A stretch of 35,398 nt of DNA. It comes from Planctomycetaceae bacterium. Lineage in GTDB: Bacteria > Planctomycetota > Planctomycetia > Planctomycetales > Planctomycetaceae. Below are positions 16,801-24,190 of this stretch, in pieces; position 1 is the first letter of the stretch, and each line of letters opens with the position of its first letter. The position numbers were made by a program, and so were the translations under genes. The notes under the pieces are model-generated. The model was not told the DNA's origin. It saw nothing but the letters and a program-made list of their open reading frames with translations, and searched no databases. The DNA is taken from NCBI GenBank assembly GCA_009691905.1, contig SIAF01000010.1, positions 1 to 35,398 on the forward strand, read 5' to 3'.

Positions 16801-17202
16801 TTAGAACAGCACCTCAAAACCGGCGGAGGCGAAGTGTTTGTCGCTCGTGAAGGCTTGTGTAATCCCGAGGCGGCGCATGACCGAGAAGGAGATGAGATCC
16901 ACCACGCTGGCAGTGCCCGGGGCGCCCCGAGAGTAGTCGTTCCAGGCTTGATCGAGTTCGACCGGAGTAGCCTCGAAGAGATCCCCCACGAGGCCCAGGT
17001 CTTCCCGGAGACGCACCACGTCGGTGCGATACGAACGGCGAACGGCCTGCTTCGCGCACTCCAGCAGAATGTACGAAGTCGTCACCAGCCGCGTGGTGCG
17101 GGGATCGAATGTCCTATACACCGAGTCCGCGGCCGTATGCCATTGATCGCGACGGCTCCAGACGGCGATCAAACCCACGGTATCCAGAAACACGGTTCTC
17201 AC
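16801..17202 (-). CDS. PIN-domain toxin (VapC-like)
   Basis: MRTVFLDTVGLIAVWSRRDQWHTAA...SYILLECAK...ASVVDLISFSVMRRLGITQAFTSDKHFASAGFEVLF. Confidence 0.88.
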   Translation of the reverse strand: MRTVFLDTVGLIAVWSRRDQWHTAADSVYRTFDPRTTRLVTTSYILLECAKQAVRRSYRTDVVRLREDLGLVGDLFEATPVELDQAWNDYSRGAPGTASVVDLISFSVMRRLGITQAFTSDKHFASAGFEVLF

Positions 17203-17411
17203 GGCTCGTGCTCATTGTGATTTTCGGAATCGCCGGGCTCGCCATCGTCGTAACGGTGCGACAGCGTTTCGAAAATGCGGCGGTGGGCCGCGCGGACTCG
17301 CTCGGCCGCGACATCTTCGGTTTCGATGATGACTTTCGTCCCTTCGGGCAAATCCACGGGATCGAGGGGCCGGAAGAGGCCCTTTTCATAGACGGCTGGT
17401 ATGGCGTTCAT
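17199..17411 (-). CDS. Antitoxin of AF2212/DUF104-like family
   Basis: MNAIPAVYEKGLFRPLDPVDLPEGTKVIIETED; stop overlaps toxin start by 4 nt. Confidence 0.87.
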   Translation of the reverse strand: MNAIPAVYEKGLFRPLDPVDLPEGTKVIIETEDVAAERVRAAHRRIFETLSHRYDDGEPGDSENHNEHEP

Positions 17412-17473
17412 CCCCTCACCTCATGCAGCTGGTTTCGCGTTTATACTCGTCCAATAGTATACCAGGTTCCGTC

Positions 17474-17508
17474 GGGTGTCACGGACAGCGATCCCGGCGC
17501 GCCGGGAT
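17474..17508. repeat. GGGTGYCACGGACAGCGA motif followed by 18-bp palindrome ATCCCGGCGCGCCGGGAT
   Basis: 17474-17492 matches 20327-20345 except at two positions; palindrome at 17491-17508. Confidence 0.75.
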
Positions 17509-17667: not shown

Positions 17668-20220
17668 ATGCAACGTCGGGTCTTTATCAGTGCCGTCAGC
17701 GACGAGCTGAAGTCGTATCGCGTGCTCGTTGACCAGAAACTGCGGCTGCGCGGATATGAGCCGGTGGTTCAGGAGATTTTCGACCTCACCGATCAGGCGA
17801 TTCTCGACAAGCTGCGCGACAAGATCAGCGGCTGCGAGGCGGTCATCTGCCTGATCGGAGCGGCATACGGCGCTGAACCGATGCAACCGCCGGCGGGCGC
17901 ACCGCGGCGATCGTTCACGCAGTGGGAGTTCTTTCTCGCTCAGGAGCTGAAAAAGAACGTCTATCGCCTCGTTGCGACCGATGCGGCGCCCGTCGACCAC
18001 CCGAATGCCGAATCCGACGAGTTGCGGGCATTGCAGCAGACGTTTCGGGCCGATGTCACCGGCGATCGCGATTGGCGGTCATTCGCCAACCAGGCCGAGC
18101 TTCGGGCCGAGATTGCCGAGCTGCGGTTCCCCTGGGAGCCGGCCCGTGCCGGCGATTCCAAACCCCAGAACCTGCCGGCGAGCCTGGGAACCCTGTTCAA
18201 GGGACGCGACGAGTTTTTGAAGACGCTGCACGAGAGGCTGACGGCGGCCGCGGGACACGTCGCGGCGATCACCCCCCGGCACGCGATTCACGGGCTGGGA
18301 GGGGTCGGCAAGACGCAGTTGGCGGTCGAGTACGGCTGGCGGTATCGGGACGACTACACCGCGCTCTTGTACGTCTTCGCCGATTCGCCGCAGGCGCTGC
18401 TGGCCAATCTCGCCCGGCTGACCGGCGTGCTGCAGATCTCCGGGCTGGATCAGCAGGGGGACCCCGAACGGGCGCAGGGGGTGCTCGATTGGCTGCGGGA
18501 GCATCCCGGCTGGTACCTGGTGATCGACAACGTCGACACCCGCGAGGCGGTTCAGGGGGTGACCGCGACGCTCGATCGGCTTGTGGGGGGGCATGTGGTG
18601 ATCACCAGCCGCATCGCGCAGTGGCCCGACCTGGTCGAGCCGCTGGGGCTGGATGTGCTGGTCCCCGACGACGGCGTGGCCTACCTGCTCGAAGCGGCCC
18701 GGCAGCGCGACCGCGCGGCAGACGACGTCGACCAGGCGCGGGCCTTGGTCGGCCTGCTGGACGGGCTGGCATTAGCCCTGACGCAAAGCGCGGCGTACAT
18801 CAACAGGTACAAGATCGGGTTCGCCGAGTACCGCCGGCGCTGGCAATCGGGAGCCGAGCGGGTGCAGTCGTGGCACGATGCCAAAGCGATGACGTATCCC
18901 AGAAGCGTCGCCGTCACGTGGAACACGTCGGTCGAGCAACTTTCGGCCGGGGGCCGGCGATTGCTGGAGCTGTTGGCATGGCTGGCTCCCGAGCCGATCC
19001 CACGGGAGTTTCTGACGGGGATGAAGTCAGCGAATCCGCTGGATGAGGCGGGAGTCGACGCACCGGAAGAGATGCTGGCCGAACTGGCCGACCTGTCGCT
19101 GGTCAAGCTGACGGCGAACAGCGTGGAGGTGCATCGGCTGGTGCAGGAGATCACGCGCAACCAGGTCGCAGCAGATGAGCGTGCAGGCCGGGTCAAGGTG
19201 CTGCTGGCCTTGTTTGACGTCAATGAACTCGGAAATCCGACCGACCTCCAGACATGGCCCCGGTGGGAACCACTCGCGCCGCACCTGGCGGCACTGGTGG
19301 AACATGCCGACGCACTCGAAGTTGCCGAGGGGACCGCGCGATGGATGAACGGTCTCGGTTTGTATCTTGCTGAGCGAATCCGGTTAGTGGAAGCCGAACG
19401 GTTGTACCGGCGGGCGCTGGCGATCGACGAGCAAAGCTACGGTCCGAACCATTCCGATGTCGCCCGCGACCTCAACAACCTGGCTACATTGCTCCAGGCC
19501 ACGAACCGACTGGGGGAGGCGGAGCCGCTCATGCACCGCGTCGTTACGATCGTCGAGAAGAGTCTCGGCCAAGACCATCCGAATGTCGCTACGGCGCTCA
19601 ACAACCTGGCGCAGTTGCTCCAGGCCACGAATCGGCTGGGGGAGGCCGAGCCGCTCATGCGGCGGGCACTGGCGATCGACGAGCAGAGCCATGGTCCCGA
19701 CCATCCCAAAGTCGCCAGAGACCTCATTAACCTGGCTGCGTTGCTCCAGGACACGAACCGGTTGGGGGAGGCCGAGCCGCTCATGCGACGGGCGCTGGTG
19801 ATCGACGAGCAGAGCTATGGTCCCGACCATCCCGATGTCGCAAGAGCCCTCAACAACCTTGCGCAGTTGCTCCAGGCCACGAATCGGCTGGGGGAGGCCG
19901 AGCCGCTCATGCGGCGGGCGCTGGCGATCAACGAGCAAAGCTACGGTCCCGACCATCCCGATGTCGCAAGAGCCCTCAACAACCTTGCGCAGTTGCTCCA
20001 GGCCACGAATCGGCTGGGGGAGGCCGAGCCGCTCATGCGGCGTCATCTGGAGATCTTCCTGCAGTTCACGACCGCAACGGGCCATGAGCATCCCCACCTG
20101 CGTGACGCGGTCGCCAACTACACCGCACTCCTCGAAGAAATGGGCCGCACGCCGCACGAAGTCGAGGCCCGGCTCGCCGCGCTCACCCGGCAGTTCGGCA
20201 CGGGGGATAGTGGAGAGTAG
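17668..20220 (+). CDS. DUF4062 + NB-ARC (STAND NTPase) + TPR repeat protein
   Basis: MQRRVFISAVSDELKSYRVLVDQKLRLRG (DUF4062), AIHGLGGVGKTQLAVEYGWRY (Walker A), WYLVIDNVD (Walker B), ~6 kinesin-light-chain-like TPRs (42 aa). Confidence 0.92.
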   Translation: MQRRVFISAVSDELKSYRVLVDQKLRLRGYEPVVQEIFDLTDQAILDKLRDKISGCEAVICLIGAAYGAEPMQPPAGAPRRSFTQWEFFLAQELKKNVYRLVATDAAPVDHPNAESDELRALQQTFRADVTGDRDWRSFANQAELRAEIAELRFPWEPARAGDSKPQNLPASLGTLFKGRDEFLKTLHERLTAAAGHVAAITPRHAIHGLGGVGKTQLAVEYGWRYRDDYTALLYVFADSPQALLANLARLTGVLQISGLDQQGDPERAQGVLDWLREHPGWYLVIDNVDTREAVQGVTATLDRLVGGHVVITSRIAQWPDLVEPLGLDVLVPDDGVAYLLEAARQRDRAADDVDQARALVGLLDGLALALTQSAAYINRYKIGFAEYRRRWQSGAERVQSWHDAKAMTYPRSVAVTWNTSVEQLSAGGRRLLELLAWLAPEPIPREFLTGMKSANPLDEAGVDAPEEMLAELADLSLVKLTANSVEVHRLVQEITRNQVAADERAGRVKVLLALFDVNELGNPTDLQTWPRWEPLAPHLAALVEHADALEVAEGTARWMNGLGLYLAERIRLVEAERLYRRALAIDEQSYGPNHSDVARDLNNLATLLQATNRLGEAEPLMHRVVTIVEKSLGQDHPNVATALNNLAQLLQATNRLGEAEPLMRRALAIDEQSHGPDHPKVARDLINLAALLQDTNRLGEAEPLMRRALVIDEQSYGPDHPDVARALNNLAQLLQATNRLGEAEPLMRRALAINEQSYGPDHPDVARALNNLAQLLQATNRLGEAEPLMRRHLEIFLQFTTATGHEHPHLRDAVANYTALLEEMGRTPHEVEARLAALTRQFGTGDSGE
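19471..20042 (+). repeat. 126-bp tandem TPR-encoding repeats
   Basis: CTCAACAACCT-type units start at 19471, 19597, 19723, 19849, 19975; the last two agree almost perfectly. Confidence 0.95.
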
Positions 20221-20247: not shown

Positions 20248-20326
20248 GCGGGGCGCGCAGTGGAGCTTTCCCGGCGGGGGCGTCCTGGGCAGAGTTTGGC
20301 GCGGCGTGAAAGGGCCGCATTCCTTC

Positions 20327-20479
20327 GGGTGCCACGGACAGCGACCAACGGGAGTCGTCCGTGCGTACGTCTCGTTGCGCTGCCAGTTCTCCCTCACGAC
20401 GTTCAGAATTCACTCAGGAAACGCACTCCGGTTTGCCACTCGCACGGACGACTCCCTTCGGTCGCTGTCCGTGGCACCC
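20327..20479. repeat. Long inverted repeat, 39-bp arms, 37/39 matching
   Basis: Arm 20327-20365 gggtgccacggacagcgaccaacgggagtcgtccgtgcg; arm 20441-20479 is its reverse complement except two loop positions. Confidence 0.93.
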
Positions 20480-20544
20480 GGCGCGGGGGAATCGTGGATA
20501 GTGGATCGTAACGGGACCGGTAGCGAAGCAGAGCTTCGGCGGGT

Positions 20545-20571: not shown

Positions 20572-20872
20572 TCTCACCCCGCCACCCAACGTTTCACAGC
20601 ATGACCGGGGTCCTGCCGATCGAAAGGACTTCGCTCCAACGCCTTGTCCCTGAGCTTCGTAGAACATCCCGGCGGATTGTCTCCCGTCTTTCGATCCGAT
20701 ACAAATGGGTTTTCTCCCCGTGTTTGTCGGTCGAACCCCGTTTCTCCCTGAAACCGGGGCTTGTCCCTGGAATCGGTCTCGTTCAGCGTCCTTACTTCCC
20801 GGCTGTGCCTTGAACTCTGTCGCTCTTTCCACCGCGGTTGAGGTTCCCTCGCAAGGGCCTTATCGGCTTTGG

Positions 20873-23227
20873 ATGAAACGCCGGCTGCCGCGGCCGGCCC
20901 TGTGTCTGGCTGCACTGTGGGGCCTGGTTGCGCTCGGCACGGCACCGCTGGCAGGTCAGGAACGCCCCCCGTCAACCGCGGAGACCTCCCCGGCCGGTAA
21001 TCACGGCATCGCCATCGAACGAATTGAGATCGGCCTGGCAGGTCACTACAAAGTCGGCGAATGGACGGCGCTGCGCCTCGTGGTCCGCGCTGCGACCCCG
21101 CAGCAGGTCTCGGTCGTTGTCGAAGCCCCCGATTCCGACGACAACCTCGCCCTGCTGCCCAGCCGCCTGTTCGATCTTCCGGCGAATGTGCCGACGCGGC
21201 TCGAATCCTGCTTCCGCACCGGGCGCCAGCACGGCGAATTGCGGATTCGACTGGTCGACCCGCAGGGGGGCCTGCTGCTCGAACGCCCGTTGCGGACGTC
21301 TGAAGATGAATCGGCGGTCTTGCGTCCCGCGCTGCGGCACGATGTGCCGCTGTGGGTCACGCTGCCCCAACTGCCCGACCTGGAGAGCGGGCCGGCGCGG
21401 GCCAGATCAGAAGCACGCAGCGCGGCGTTGCCGACGGCCGAGTCGAGCTACGAGCCGCAGGTCGCCCGGCTCCAATCGCTGGCAGAACTTCCCGAGCACC
21501 CCAAGGCGCTCGAATCGGTCGATATTCTTGTATTGCCGACGGCGCCGCGCGCTGACGGAGCCTCGCTGTTGGCGGGCATGACGGCCCAGCACGATCGGGT
21601 GTTGCACGACTGGGTTCGCGGGGGGGGACATTTGCTCGTGACAGTCGCTCAGGCGGCGAACGAGTATCGTGAGTCGCCGTTGGCAGCGTGGGTGCCGATC
21701 GAAGTCGCCGGTCGCGGATCGCTGCGACAGTTCACGGGGCTCGAGAGCTTCTCGGGAATTAGCGTGCCATTGCGGACTGGGGGATCGCAGCCGGTGGCGC
21801 GACTGGCGCCGCTGACGAACGGGAAGGCGATCGTCAAAGAAGGCAACGCCGTGCTGATCGCGGCCGCTCCCTACGGATTTGGCCGGGTCACGCTCGCCGG
21901 CATTGATCTCGAAACGCCGCCGTTTTCCACGTGGTCGGCACTGCCCAGCGTACTCCGAAAACTGGCGGGGGCGCCGGGCCGCGCGACGCAGCAGGCGGCG
22001 CGGCAGCCGAACCGGCAATTGTCGCAGACGGGAATCACCGACATCGCCACGCAATTGCAGACCGCTCGCGAGGATTTTCCGGCCGTGGCACGCCCCTCGC
22101 ATTGGTGGGTGATGGGCTTGTTGATCGCCTACCTGCTCGTCATCGGGCCGCTCGATTATTTTGTCGTGCATCGCTGGCTGCGGCGTCCGGAACTGACCTG
22201 GTTGACGTTTCCGCTGCTGGTGTGCCTGGGGGCGGGTGCCGCGACCTGGGGAGCGACGCGCGCCAATGCTCGCGGGCTGAAATTCAACCAGCTCGATCTG
22301 GTCGATTACGACGCGTCGACCAAATCGTGCCGCGGTCGCACCTGGATCTCGATTTACAGCCCCGAGAACCGGCGGTACGAAATCGCCGTCAAGCCGGGCC
22401 CAGTTAAACCCAGCACGGCCAAGCCGGGCACGGCCACACCAGTCACCCTGACCTGGAGTGGCGTTCCCGAGAATTCGGTCAGCGGCGTTTATCGTCCGGG
22501 GGGTGCGGGGGGAAGCCGGCGGGAATACGCTTTTTCGACCGACGCAACCCAGGTCGAGAACCTGCCGATCCTGCAGTGGTCCACAAAAAGCTTGTGCGCC
22601 ACCTGGGAATCGGACGTCGATTCGCCGCCGGTCGAGAGCCGCCTCGAAACCGCCGGTCCGGGACAAATTCGAGGGACCTTGACGCATCACCTGCCGGAAA
22701 CACTGGAAGACTGCCTGCTGATCGTCGGCGGCTGGGCGTATGCGCCGACACGCGCGAATGCCTCGATCGCGCCCGACGTTGCCTGGACGCCGGGGGGACC
22801 TCAAGGCCGGGCGCGCGATCTCAAGGCGCTGCTGACGGGTGAACGTCGCACCCGCAAGGAAAACGGCAAGCTTCAAACCGAAGTTTTGACCACCACCGCG
22901 CCGTACAATCCGTTCAACGTCAACCCGGTCGATCTGATCCAGATGATTTCGTTTCACCAGGTGGCCGGCGGCAGCGAATACACGGGGCTGGCAAACGCCG
23001 CGCTCCGCGACCTCGAACTGACGCACCTGATGAAACTCGGTCGCGGCATTCTGATCGGTCGCATCAAGTCGCCACAGGCGCAAGTTGCGATCGACGGCCA
23101 GACACCGACCCCCGCCGATGCGGCCGCATTCGTCAGGCTGATCGTGCCCGTGACCAATATCGAGCGGGCGCCGGCAGCGACAATTCCCAAAGCGGGTGAG
23201 CGAGAGCCGTCCGGCGTCTTGCAGTAA
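20873..23227 (+). CDS. Large exported/membrane hypothetical protein (possible glutamine-amidotransferase-like fold)
   Basis: Signal MKRRLPRPALCLAALWGLVALGTAPLAG; TM segment WVMGLLIAYLLVIGPLDYFVVHRWL; upstream ORF extension looks non-coding. Confidence 0.8.
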   Translation: MKRRLPRPALCLAALWGLVALGTAPLAGQERPPSTAETSPAGNHGIAIERIEIGLAGHYKVGEWTALRLVVRAATPQQVSVVVEAPDSDDNLALLPSRLFDLPANVPTRLESCFRTGRQHGELRIRLVDPQGGLLLERPLRTSEDESAVLRPALRHDVPLWVTLPQLPDLESGPARARSEARSAALPTAESSYEPQVARLQSLAELPEHPKALESVDILVLPTAPRADGASLLAGMTAQHDRVLHDWVRGGGHLLVTVAQAANEYRESPLAAWVPIEVAGRGSLRQFTGLESFSGISVPLRTGGSQPVARLAPLTNGKAIVKEGNAVLIAAAPYGFGRVTLAGIDLETPPFSTWSALPSVLRKLAGAPGRATQQAARQPNRQLSQTGITDIATQLQTAREDFPAVARPSHWWVMGLLIAYLLVIGPLDYFVVHRWLRRPELTWLTFPLLVCLGAGAATWGATRANARGLKFNQLDLVDYDASTKSCRGRTWISIYSPENRRYEIAVKPGPVKPSTAKPGTATPVTLTWSGVPENSVSGVYRPGGAGGSRREYAFSTDATQVENLPILQWSTKSLCATWESDVDSPPVESRLETAGPGQIRGTLTHHLPETLEDCLLIVGGWAYAPTRANASIAPDVAWTPGGPQGRARDLKALLTGERRTRKENGKLQTEVLTTTAPYNPFNVNPVDLIQMISFHQVAGGSEYTGLANAALRDLELTHLMKLGRGILIGRIKSPQAQVAIDGQTPTPADAAAFVRLIVPVTNIERAPAATIPKAGEREPSGVLQ

Positions 23228-23260
23228 ACCCGCTCTCTCTATCCTTTGCAGCGTGCCTTT

Positions 23261-24190
23261 GTGATTGAAACGCAAAAACTGACCAAGCGCTACGGCGACC
23301 TGATCGCCGTCAACCAGGTCGATCTCAAACTCGACGCAGGCGACGTGTTCGGGTTCATCGGCCCGAACGGGTCGGGCAAAACAACCACGATGCGGATGCT
23401 GGCCACGCTGCTCAACCCCGATTACGGCGAAGCCTACGTCTGCGGCATGTCGATCTACACGCATCCGCAGGAAATCCGCCGGCTGGTCGGTTTCATGCCC
23501 GACTTTTACGGGGTTTACGATGACATGAAAGTCATCGAGTATCTTGAGTTCTTCGCCGCTGCGTATCGCATCAACGGCCCCCATCGCCGCAAGGTCTGCG
23601 AAGAAAAGCTGGAACTGGTCGATATGACCTTCAAGCGCGACGCGATGGTCAACCAGCTTTCGCGCGGCCAGACGCAGCGAATCGGACTGGCGCGCGTGCT
23701 GCTGCACGAACCGCAGGTGCTGCTGCTCGACGAGCCGGCCAGCGGCCTCGACCCGCGGGCGCGCATCGAGATCAGGCGGCTGTTGAAGCGGCTGGGCGAG
23801 ATGCGTAAGACCGTGATGGTCTCCAGCCACATTCTGCCCGAGCTGGCCGACGTCTGTAACAAGGTGGGAATGATCGAAAAGGGCGAATTGTTCGTCAACG
23901 GGCGGGTCGAAGAGGTCATGCAGCTGGTGCGACAGGCGATTATCCTGCACGTCAAGGTCACCGGCGACGCCGAACGAGCCGCTAAGCTGATCGAGCCGCA
24001 CGACGACGTCGCCAAAGTCGAAGTCCGCCCCGAGTCGCTGATTGTCGTCACGCTGAACAAAGGGGTTCACGACTACAGTTTCCTGTCGGAACTGTTGCAC
24101 AATGCCGGCCATCGCCTGACATTGTTTCGCGAAGAAGAACTGAACCTCGAAACCGCGTTTATGGAACTGACGCGCGGTCTCGTGCAGTGA
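23261..24190 (+). CDS. ABC transporter ATP-binding protein
   Basis: FGFIGPNGSGKTTTMRML Walker A, LSRGQTQRIGLAR signature, VLLLDEPASGLDP Walker B; GTG (23261) or TTG (23246) start. Confidence 0.93.
   Translation: MIETQKLTKRYGDLIAVNQVDLKLDAGDVFGFIGPNGSGKTTTMRMLATLLNPDYGEAYVCGMSIYTHPQEIRRLVGFMPDFYGVYDDMKVIEYLEFFAAAYRINGPHRRKVCEEKLELVDMTFKRDAMVNQLSRGQTQRIGLARVLLHEPQVLLLDEPASGLDPRARIEIRRLLKRLGEMRKTVMVSSHILPELADVCNKVGMIEKGELFVNGRVEEVMQLVRQAIILHVKVTGDAERAAKLIEPHDDVAKVEVRPESLIVVTLNKGVHDYSFLSELLHNAGHRLTLFREEELNLETAFMELTRGLVQ

What the first reader, a model, noticed from the sequence alone, without database searches (positions are those of the whole stretch)
17668..20220. DUF4062-NB-ARC-TPR STAND protein: candidate conflict/defence sensor
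Seen: an N-terminal DUF4062 domain, a P-loop NTPase with GLGGVGKTQLA, then TPR repeats. Established: the three-part layout (N-terminal effector/adaptor, STAND NTPase, repeat sensor) is found in bacterial immune and NLR-like proteins such as Avs-type systems. Inference: DUF4062 may be the signalling or effector module. It is divergent from a toxin-antitoxin pair and lies in a repeat-rich accessory region.
Basis: partly seen in the sequence, partly recalled or inferred. Interest (0 to 1): 0.62.

Follow-up and report, generated by a model that had tools for sequence, protein, structure and literature searches.

The report
NLR-like receptor with NAD-cutting-type domain
This planctomycete gene encodes a bacterial relative of plant and animal immune receptors: a probable NAD+-destroying front end, an ATP-driven switch, and a sensor made of near-identical repeats whose ligand-facing positions vary most, which suggests that bacteria, like fungi, reshuffle repeats to change what such receptors recognise.

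Summary
Confirmed: one intact 850-aa gene (17668-20220, +) with DUF4062, a NB-ARC-type STAND NTPase (GLGGVGKT), winged-helix DUF7779 and five near-identical 42-aa kinesin-light-chain-type TPRs, divergent from an AF2212-like/PIN toxin-antitoxin pair. DUF4062 models with high confidence (pLDDT 92) as a TIR-like fold; its best solved matches are SARM1, SPARTA and plant TIRs, and the TIR-type glutamate (E87, helix C) is kept in nearly all of 40 relatives. A May 2026 preprint showed DUF4062 to be a TIR-like NADase in antiphage defence (Swarozyc). Relatives are patchy, span five phyla and have no conserved partner gene. In this genome and a related one the same NTPase-TPR body carries a canonical TIR instead. 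New here: variation within TPR arrays sits on the concave ligand groove (16 of 16 arrays), repeat number differs at an orthologous locus, and repeat units are shared between unlinked receptor genes of one genome whose other parts are diverged. Most likely a single-gene, ligand-triggered NADase that kills or arrests the cell. NAD+ hydrolysis, trigger and phage protection are not shown; the contig is not a defence island, and known defence genes are rare near relatives.

The parts
17668..20220 (+). DUF4062-STAND(NB-ARC type)-TPR receptor gene, 850 aa
17668..18126 (+). DUF4062 / TIR-like domain, residues 1-153 (five parallel strands alternating with five helices)
   Evidence: Pfam; AF2 pLDDT 92.3; Foldseek SARM1 TIR E 4.8e-5
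17926..17928 (+). codon of E87 (SFTQWE), candidate catalytic Glu in helix C
   Evidence: nearly invariant in 40 relatives, invariant in the same-architecture set; helix 83-93
18196..18702 (+). STAND NTPase core, residues 177-345
   Evidence: NF040586; alignment A2; Foldseek
18292..18315 (+). Walker A GLGGVGKT, residues 209-216
18928..19179 (+). DUF7779 (winged-helix region of the STAND module), residues 421-504
19411..20040 (+). five near-identical 42-aa KLC-type TPR units, residues 582-791
   Evidence: variation on the groove
20041..20217 (+). C-terminal cap after the array, residues 792-850
   Evidence: diverged (third-base identity 0.42 to the C14 paralogue) while the array is not (0.78)
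17199..17411 (-). neighbour: AF2212-like antitoxin (not part of the system)
16801..17202 (-). neighbour: PIN-domain toxin (not part of the system)

Best explanation
A single-gene, NLR-like conflict receptor. At rest the STAND NTPase holds the TIR-like DUF4062 domains apart. A protein or peptide ligand (probably of an invader) binds in the concave groove of the TPR superhelix, held by the near-constant Asn pair (TPR positions 5 and 6) and read by the variable positions (-1, 2, 3, 9, 12, 13). The NTPase then exchanges nucleotide and oligomerises, bringing DUF4062 domains together; these cleave NAD+ (Glu87) and stop or kill the cell before the invader spreads. Specificity changes by gain, loss and exchange of TPR units, within the gene and with other receptor genes of the same genome. 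Shown here: anatomy, predicted fold, conserved Glu and P-loop, effector interchange, groove-focused variation, unit-number change, unit sharing between loci. Inferred from published relatives: NAD+ hydrolysis, activation by oligomerisation. Inferred only: identity of the trigger, abortive infection in this host.
For: Fold and Glu; DUF4062 is a TIR-like NADase in the antiphage protein KpSwz and in human TEP1 (PMC13174449). Effector interchange: the same chassis carries TIR_2 in this genome (C450, L015, 103.8 bits) and in four loci of a family relative; closely related DUF4062 is joined to other NTPases in L099, L100, L105. Patchy spread: 13 of 392 genomes; about 38 relatives in five phyla. No conserved partner, so the gene probably holds its own effector. 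Sensor: the six most variable of 42 positions within arrays are TPR -1, 9, 3, 2, 12, 13; the published binding positions 2, 5, 9, 12, 13 (PMC1261162) vary more than the rest in 16 of 16 arrays, permutation p 4e-4; pN/pS about 1.05 at TPR 2, 9, 12, 13 against 0.36 elsewhere. Orthologous locus in two Accumulibacter MAGs: body 90.5% identical, 6 against 10 full units. Unit sharing between loci: array third-base identity 0.78 to C14 and 0.62 to C450 against 0.42 and 0.39 in the adjoining cap; second case in a cyanobacterial MAG, units 0.70, NTPase 0.41.
Against: Neither this window nor the relatives' surroundings is a clear defence island. Human NPHP3 and NWD1/2, also DUF4062-STAND, showed no NADase activity when purified (PMC13174449), so a kept Glu does not prove activity. 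KpSwz has no STAND module, so its activation route does not carry over directly. Groove positions vary in TPRs in general (PMC1261162), so part of the pattern may be relaxed constraint. Assemblies of near-identical repeats from short reads can be collapsed or chimeric (PMC12222747). 'Invader' as the ligand is inference; self/non-self recognition of kin could fit as well.
Confidence: 0.6

Rival explanations
1. Same receptor, but the trigger is not a phage: a self/non-self (allorecognition) or competitor-effector sensor that kills the cell when a foreign variant of a bacterial protein enters, as fungal NLRs with high-identity repeats do.
For: Same repeat type (42-aa, KLC-like), same groove-focused diversification and repeat-number change as fungal NB-ARC/TPR NLRs (PMC4986451); weak link to defence islands; relatives frequent in aggregate-forming wastewater bacteria such as Accumulibacter (titles).
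Against: No bacterial precedent found in the papers searched; the published bacterial DUF4062 protein responds to a phage portal (PMC13174449).
Confidence: 0.2
2. The DUF4062 domain makes a nucleotide signal or modifies another substrate rather than depleting NAD+, with a downstream effector elsewhere in the genome.
For: Some TIRs make signals; further fold matches are nucleoside 2'-deoxyribosyltransferases and DNPH1.
Against: No conserved partner gene near 25 relatives; TEP1 and KpSwz give ADP-ribose and nicotinamide (PMC13174449).
Confidence: 0.12
3. A regulatory STAND protein (MalT/AfsR style, or the TPR partner of an FxSxx-COOH peptide system) without an immune role.
For: NCBIfam names NF040586 FxSxx_TPR just over its cut-off (321.7 against 300).
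Against: The match leaves out residues 1-176; close relatives fall below the cut-off (293 and 234 bits); no FxsB over cut-off in the genome; no DNA-binding domain matched; the FxSxx partner itself is described as a conflict-system AP-ATPase with N-terminal TIR (PMC7159879).
Confidence: 0.05
4. A decayed or scaffold protein: TIR-like fold without activity, TPRs as a general protein-binding surface.
For: Human NPHP3 is a DUF4062-STAND-TPR protein with no activity seen (PMC13174449).
Against: Open 850-aa frame, kept Glu and Walker A, and pN/pS near 0.36 outside the groove.
Confidence: 0.05

Closest known systems
Swarozyc (KpSwz), bacterial DUF4062 antiphage NADase (PMC13174449)
   Same: N-terminal DUF4062/TIR-like domain with conserved Glu; single protein
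   Different: KpSwz carries a winged-helix auxiliary domain that binds the phage portal; here a STAND NTPase and TPR array take that place
FxSxx-COOH-associated AP-ATPase-TPR proteins (NF040586; PMC7159879)
   Same: same NTPase-DUF7779-TPR chassis, and the published version has an N-terminal TIR
   Different: DUF4062 instead of TIR; no peptide-processing genes found
TIR-NB-ARC-TPR proteins (own genome C450; L006, L012, L016, L018)
   Same: same chassis; the C450 protein is 42% identical over NTPase and TPRs
   Different: canonical TIR_2 effector
Fungal NB-ARC/TPR NLRs with high internal repeat conservation (PMC4986451)
   Same: 42-aa KLC-type TPRs, near-identical units, variation on the concave face, repeat-number polymorphism
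   Different: fungal effectors (lipase-like, prion-forming and others) and allorecognition role; not bacteria
Human nephrocystin-3 (NPHP3), TEP1, NWD1/2
   Same: DUF4062 next to a STAND NTPase; NPHP3 also ends in TPRs (the Pfam NPHP3 TPR model passes its cut-off here)
   Different: the eukaryotic proteins are described with NACHT, not NB-ARC; NPHP3 inactive as purified
Avs and bNACHT bacterial STAND defence proteins
   Same: tripartite effector-NTPase-sensor logic
   Different: no PADLOC model hit; different NTPase class and sensor

Membership tests
DUF4062 TIR-like NADase | Pfam DUF4062 over its cut-off | tested here: met
   42.8 bits against 24.7
DUF4062 TIR-like NADase | TIR-like fold | tested here: met
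   AF2 pLDDT 92; Foldseek SARM1 and SPARTA TIR, E down to 4.8e-5, TM-scores about 0.45-0.6, so the same fold but not close
DUF4062 TIR-like NADase | conserved catalytic Glu in helix C | tested here: met
   E87; the equivalence to KpSwz E97 is by motif and topology, not by a residue-level superposition
DUF4062 TIR-like NADase | NAD+ hydrolysis | not testable with these tools
   needs an assay
Swarozyc defence system | auxiliary portal-binding winged-helix domain directly after DUF4062 | tested here: not met
   a STAND NTPase and TPRs follow instead
STAND / NLR-like receptor | N-terminal effector, NB-ARC-type NTPase with Walker A and winged helix, C-terminal superhelical repeats | tested here: met
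STAND / NLR-like receptor | ligand-induced oligomerisation | not testable with these tools
   needs biochemistry
Avs / PADLOC-listed defence system | match to a model of the system | tested here: not met
   no PADLOC hit at E 0.01
FxSxx-COOH system TPR protein (NF040586) | model score over the equivalog cut-off | tested here: inconclusive
   321.7 against 300, but residues 1-176 unmatched; relatives below the cut-off
FxSxx-COOH system TPR protein (NF040586) | radical-SAM FxsB in the genome | tested here: not met
   best match 27.4 bits against a cut-off of 370; the genome is 93.7% complete

The most novel reading that the evidence does not exclude
Bacteria keep a recombining pool of near-identical TPR units shared among several STAND receptors with different effectors (DUF4062, TIR and others), so that ligand-groove residues are reshuffled between receptors: a bacterial counterpart of the repeat-shuffling NLRs of fungi, built on NADase effectors.
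Probability: 0.35. Interest if true: 0.8.

Novelty: new variant of a known kind. Interest (0 to 1): 0.6.

Why it matters
It joins three lines of work: DUF4062 as a TIR-like NADase (2026 preprint), bacterial NLR-like receptors, and the repeat diversification known from fungal NLRs. If the groove variation and unit exchange hold up, it gives a bacterial receptor family whose specificity may be read from sequence and tested by swapping units, and a bacterial parallel to the DUF4062-STAND-TPR layout of human nephrocystin-3.

Tried and rejected
A first DUF4062-only alignment was too diverse to search with. FxSxx-COOH membership was considered and rejected. Operon or effector partner: none found. 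Empty-site comparison: the downstream gene is core (60 of 61 family genomes), but upstream genes are not syntenic in the relatives taken, so no clean empty site could be shown. Exchange between this gene and C450 was weak on synonymous counts alone (pS 0.44 against 0.61); it became convincing only with C14 and the cap control. Viral, metagenome, plasmid and phage collections were not searched. No known structured RNA; promoter scan uninformative. Diversity-generating retroelements were considered from the literature (PMC10907252) but not tested.

Full report
A single open frame at 17668-20220 (+) gives 850 residues. Pfam places DUF4062 at residues 4-89 (42.8 bits, cut-off 24.7), DUF7779 at 421-504 and strong TPR matches towards the C-terminus, including the nephrocystin-3 TPR model over its cut-off. 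NCBIfam NF040586 covers the NTPase (177-542). Walker A is GLGGVGKT at 209-216. The TPR part contains five units of 126 bases. Upstream and divergent lie an AF2212-like antitoxin and a PIN protein. PADLOC has no model for the protein, and the other contig proteins tested show only generic ABC-ATPase and ankyrin-type hits, so this is not a recognised defence island.

The N-terminal domain is TIR-like. AlphaFold2 with 40 sequences gives pLDDT 92.3 and a five-strand alternating fold. Foldseek against the PDB puts SARM1 TIR first (E 4.8e-5), then TIR-STING, plant RRS1/RPS4 TIR, SPARTA TIR, and nucleoside deoxyribosyltransferases. TM-scores are moderate (about 0.45-0.6), so the relation is distant. 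The motif S-[FY]-T-Q-[WFL]-E sits at the start of helix C (helix 83-93); E87 is nearly invariant across 40 sequences and invariant in the same-architecture set. One of the two scan patterns used to collect relatives contained this motif, so part of that conservation is built in; relatives found in other ways (L023, L024, L026, L035, L036, L041, L044-L047, L008, and L075) keep it too, and one, L025, has lost it.

This matters because a May 2026 preprint (PMC13174449) reports that DUF4062 is a family of TIR-like NADases: K. pneumoniae Swarozyc needs E97, depletes NAD+ and is activated by a phage portal; human TEP1 is active through E1008; human NPHP3, NWD1 and NWD2 were not active as purified. 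Its main text does not mention TPR or tetratricopeptide.

The chassis is a STAND receptor. The full-length model (pLDDT 85.8, pTM 0.67) finds kinesin light chain TPR-peptide complexes, a STAND-TPR protein (6mfv), plant TIR-NLR RPP1, NRC resistosomes, APAF-1, CED-4 and the near-identical TPR repeats of Podospora. In this same genome a second gene (C450, L015) has TIR_2 (103.8 bits) followed by the same NTPase and TPRs (42% identity), and four loci of a family relative do likewise. Conversely, closely related DUF4062 domains are joined to other NTPases (L099, L100, L105). So DUF4062 and TIR take the same place on an interchangeable body, which is what an effector domain would do. Kaur et al. describe a TIR-AP-ATPase-TPR protein with FxSxx peptide systems (PMC7159879); no FxsB over its cut-off is present in this genome.

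Distribution is accessory. Any match to the first 240 residues is found in 13 of 392 genomes of the phylum, yet about 38 same-architecture relatives occur across Planctomycetota, Pseudomonadota, Cyanobacteriota, Nitrospirota and Bacteroidota. The tree mixes phyla in places, but MAG binning and paralogy make this no proof of transfer. Among 91 neighbour genes of 25 relatives no family occurs more than twice, and only a few are restriction-type genes. The protein seems to act alone.

The sensor shows the most interesting pattern. In 16 arrays with at least four units and 60% or more mean identity, the six most variable of 42 positions are unit positions 16, 26, 20, 19, 29 and 30, that is TPR positions -1, 9, 3, 2, 12 and 13. 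Taking instead the positions named beforehand by Magliery and Regan (2, 5, 9, 12, 13; PMC1261162), variability is 0.55 against 0.18 elsewhere, higher in 16 of 16 arrays, permutation p 4e-4. Helix-B positions taken as convex-side surface stay constant (0.14). At TPR 2, 9, 12 and 13 the proportions of nonsynonymous and synonymous differences are 0.39 and 0.37; elsewhere they are 0.11 and 0.29, so the contrast lies in amino-acid change. These are uncorrected proportions, arrays are partly related, and removing near-duplicates leaves the top six unchanged. The Asn at position 6, a position that contacts peptide backbone in TPR complexes, is nearly fixed. Fungal NB-ARC/TPR NLRs show the same behaviour on the same repeat type (PMC4986451).

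Units are gained, lost and shared. At an orthologous locus of two Accumulibacter MAGs the flanks are 92.7% and 83.5% identical and the body 90.5%, but one array has six full units and the other ten. In the window's genome a third array at the start of contig C14 has a unit that matches one of this gene at 94% of 126 bases; array third-base identity is 0.78 while the adjoining cap is at 0.42; for the C450 TIR gene the values are 0.62 and 0.39; arrays of other species reach 0.31-0.60. A cyanobacterial MAG repeats the pattern: two genes with NTPases at 31% identity (third-base 0.41) share units at 0.70, there together with the cap. Exchange or copying of arrays between receptor genes is the simplest reading. 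Chimeric assembly is the main worry, since the window's genome comes in 490 contigs and C14 begins inside the array; the shared units are alike but not identical, which speaks against simple assembly copies.

Mechanism and rivals: the best-supported account is ligand binding in the TPR groove, NTPase-driven oligomerisation, and NAD+ cleavage by DUF4062, ending in growth arrest or death. The fold, residues and diversification are shown or predicted here; the enzymatic step is inferred from relatives; the trigger is unknown. Recognition of non-self cells rather than phage remains a serious alternative. By kind it is a new variant: a DUF4062 effector on a NB-ARC-TPR receptor with groove-focused repeat diversification.

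Noticed in passing
window 17473-17489, 20326-20342, 20464-20480: Dispersed intergenic repeat CGGGTGYCACGGACAGC; 36 places in the genome with up to one mismatch, none for the reversed pattern. Two copies bracket the receptor gene and two form a 40-nt inverted pair after it.
   Followed up: partly
L002 (G000:C42:10464-10688): A second DUF4062 protein in the genome, next to a Ser/Thr kinase-like gene, appears to lack the Glu of the TQxE motif; possibly an inactive sensor.
   Followed up: no
L011 (G000:C64): Same NTPase-TPR chassis with a different N-terminus that holds cysteine pairs like an HNH or zinc module; no Pfam match there.
   Followed up: no
L062 and L064: A 4.5-kb stretch is 96.7% identical between a Planctomycetota MAG and a Zoogloea MAG: recent transfer or misbinning.
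   Followed up: no
L023 (G052:C49): A same-architecture relative is broken by several in-frame TGA codons, two at the same place of successive TPR units: pseudogene or recoding.
   Followed up: no
L035, L041, L044, L045, L046, L047 (G052): One planctomycete genome holds at least six further DUF4062 genes; those read through show DUF4062, a membrane helix and a different repeat array.
   Followed up: no
L100 and L105: Two genes of one cyanobacterial MAG share DUF4062 DNA at 81% identity and then diverge: recent domain shuffling.
   Followed up: partly
window 20705-24190: The gene after the receptor is conserved in 60 of 61 family genomes and is followed by an ABC ATPase: probably a core export-type operon.
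   Followed up: partly
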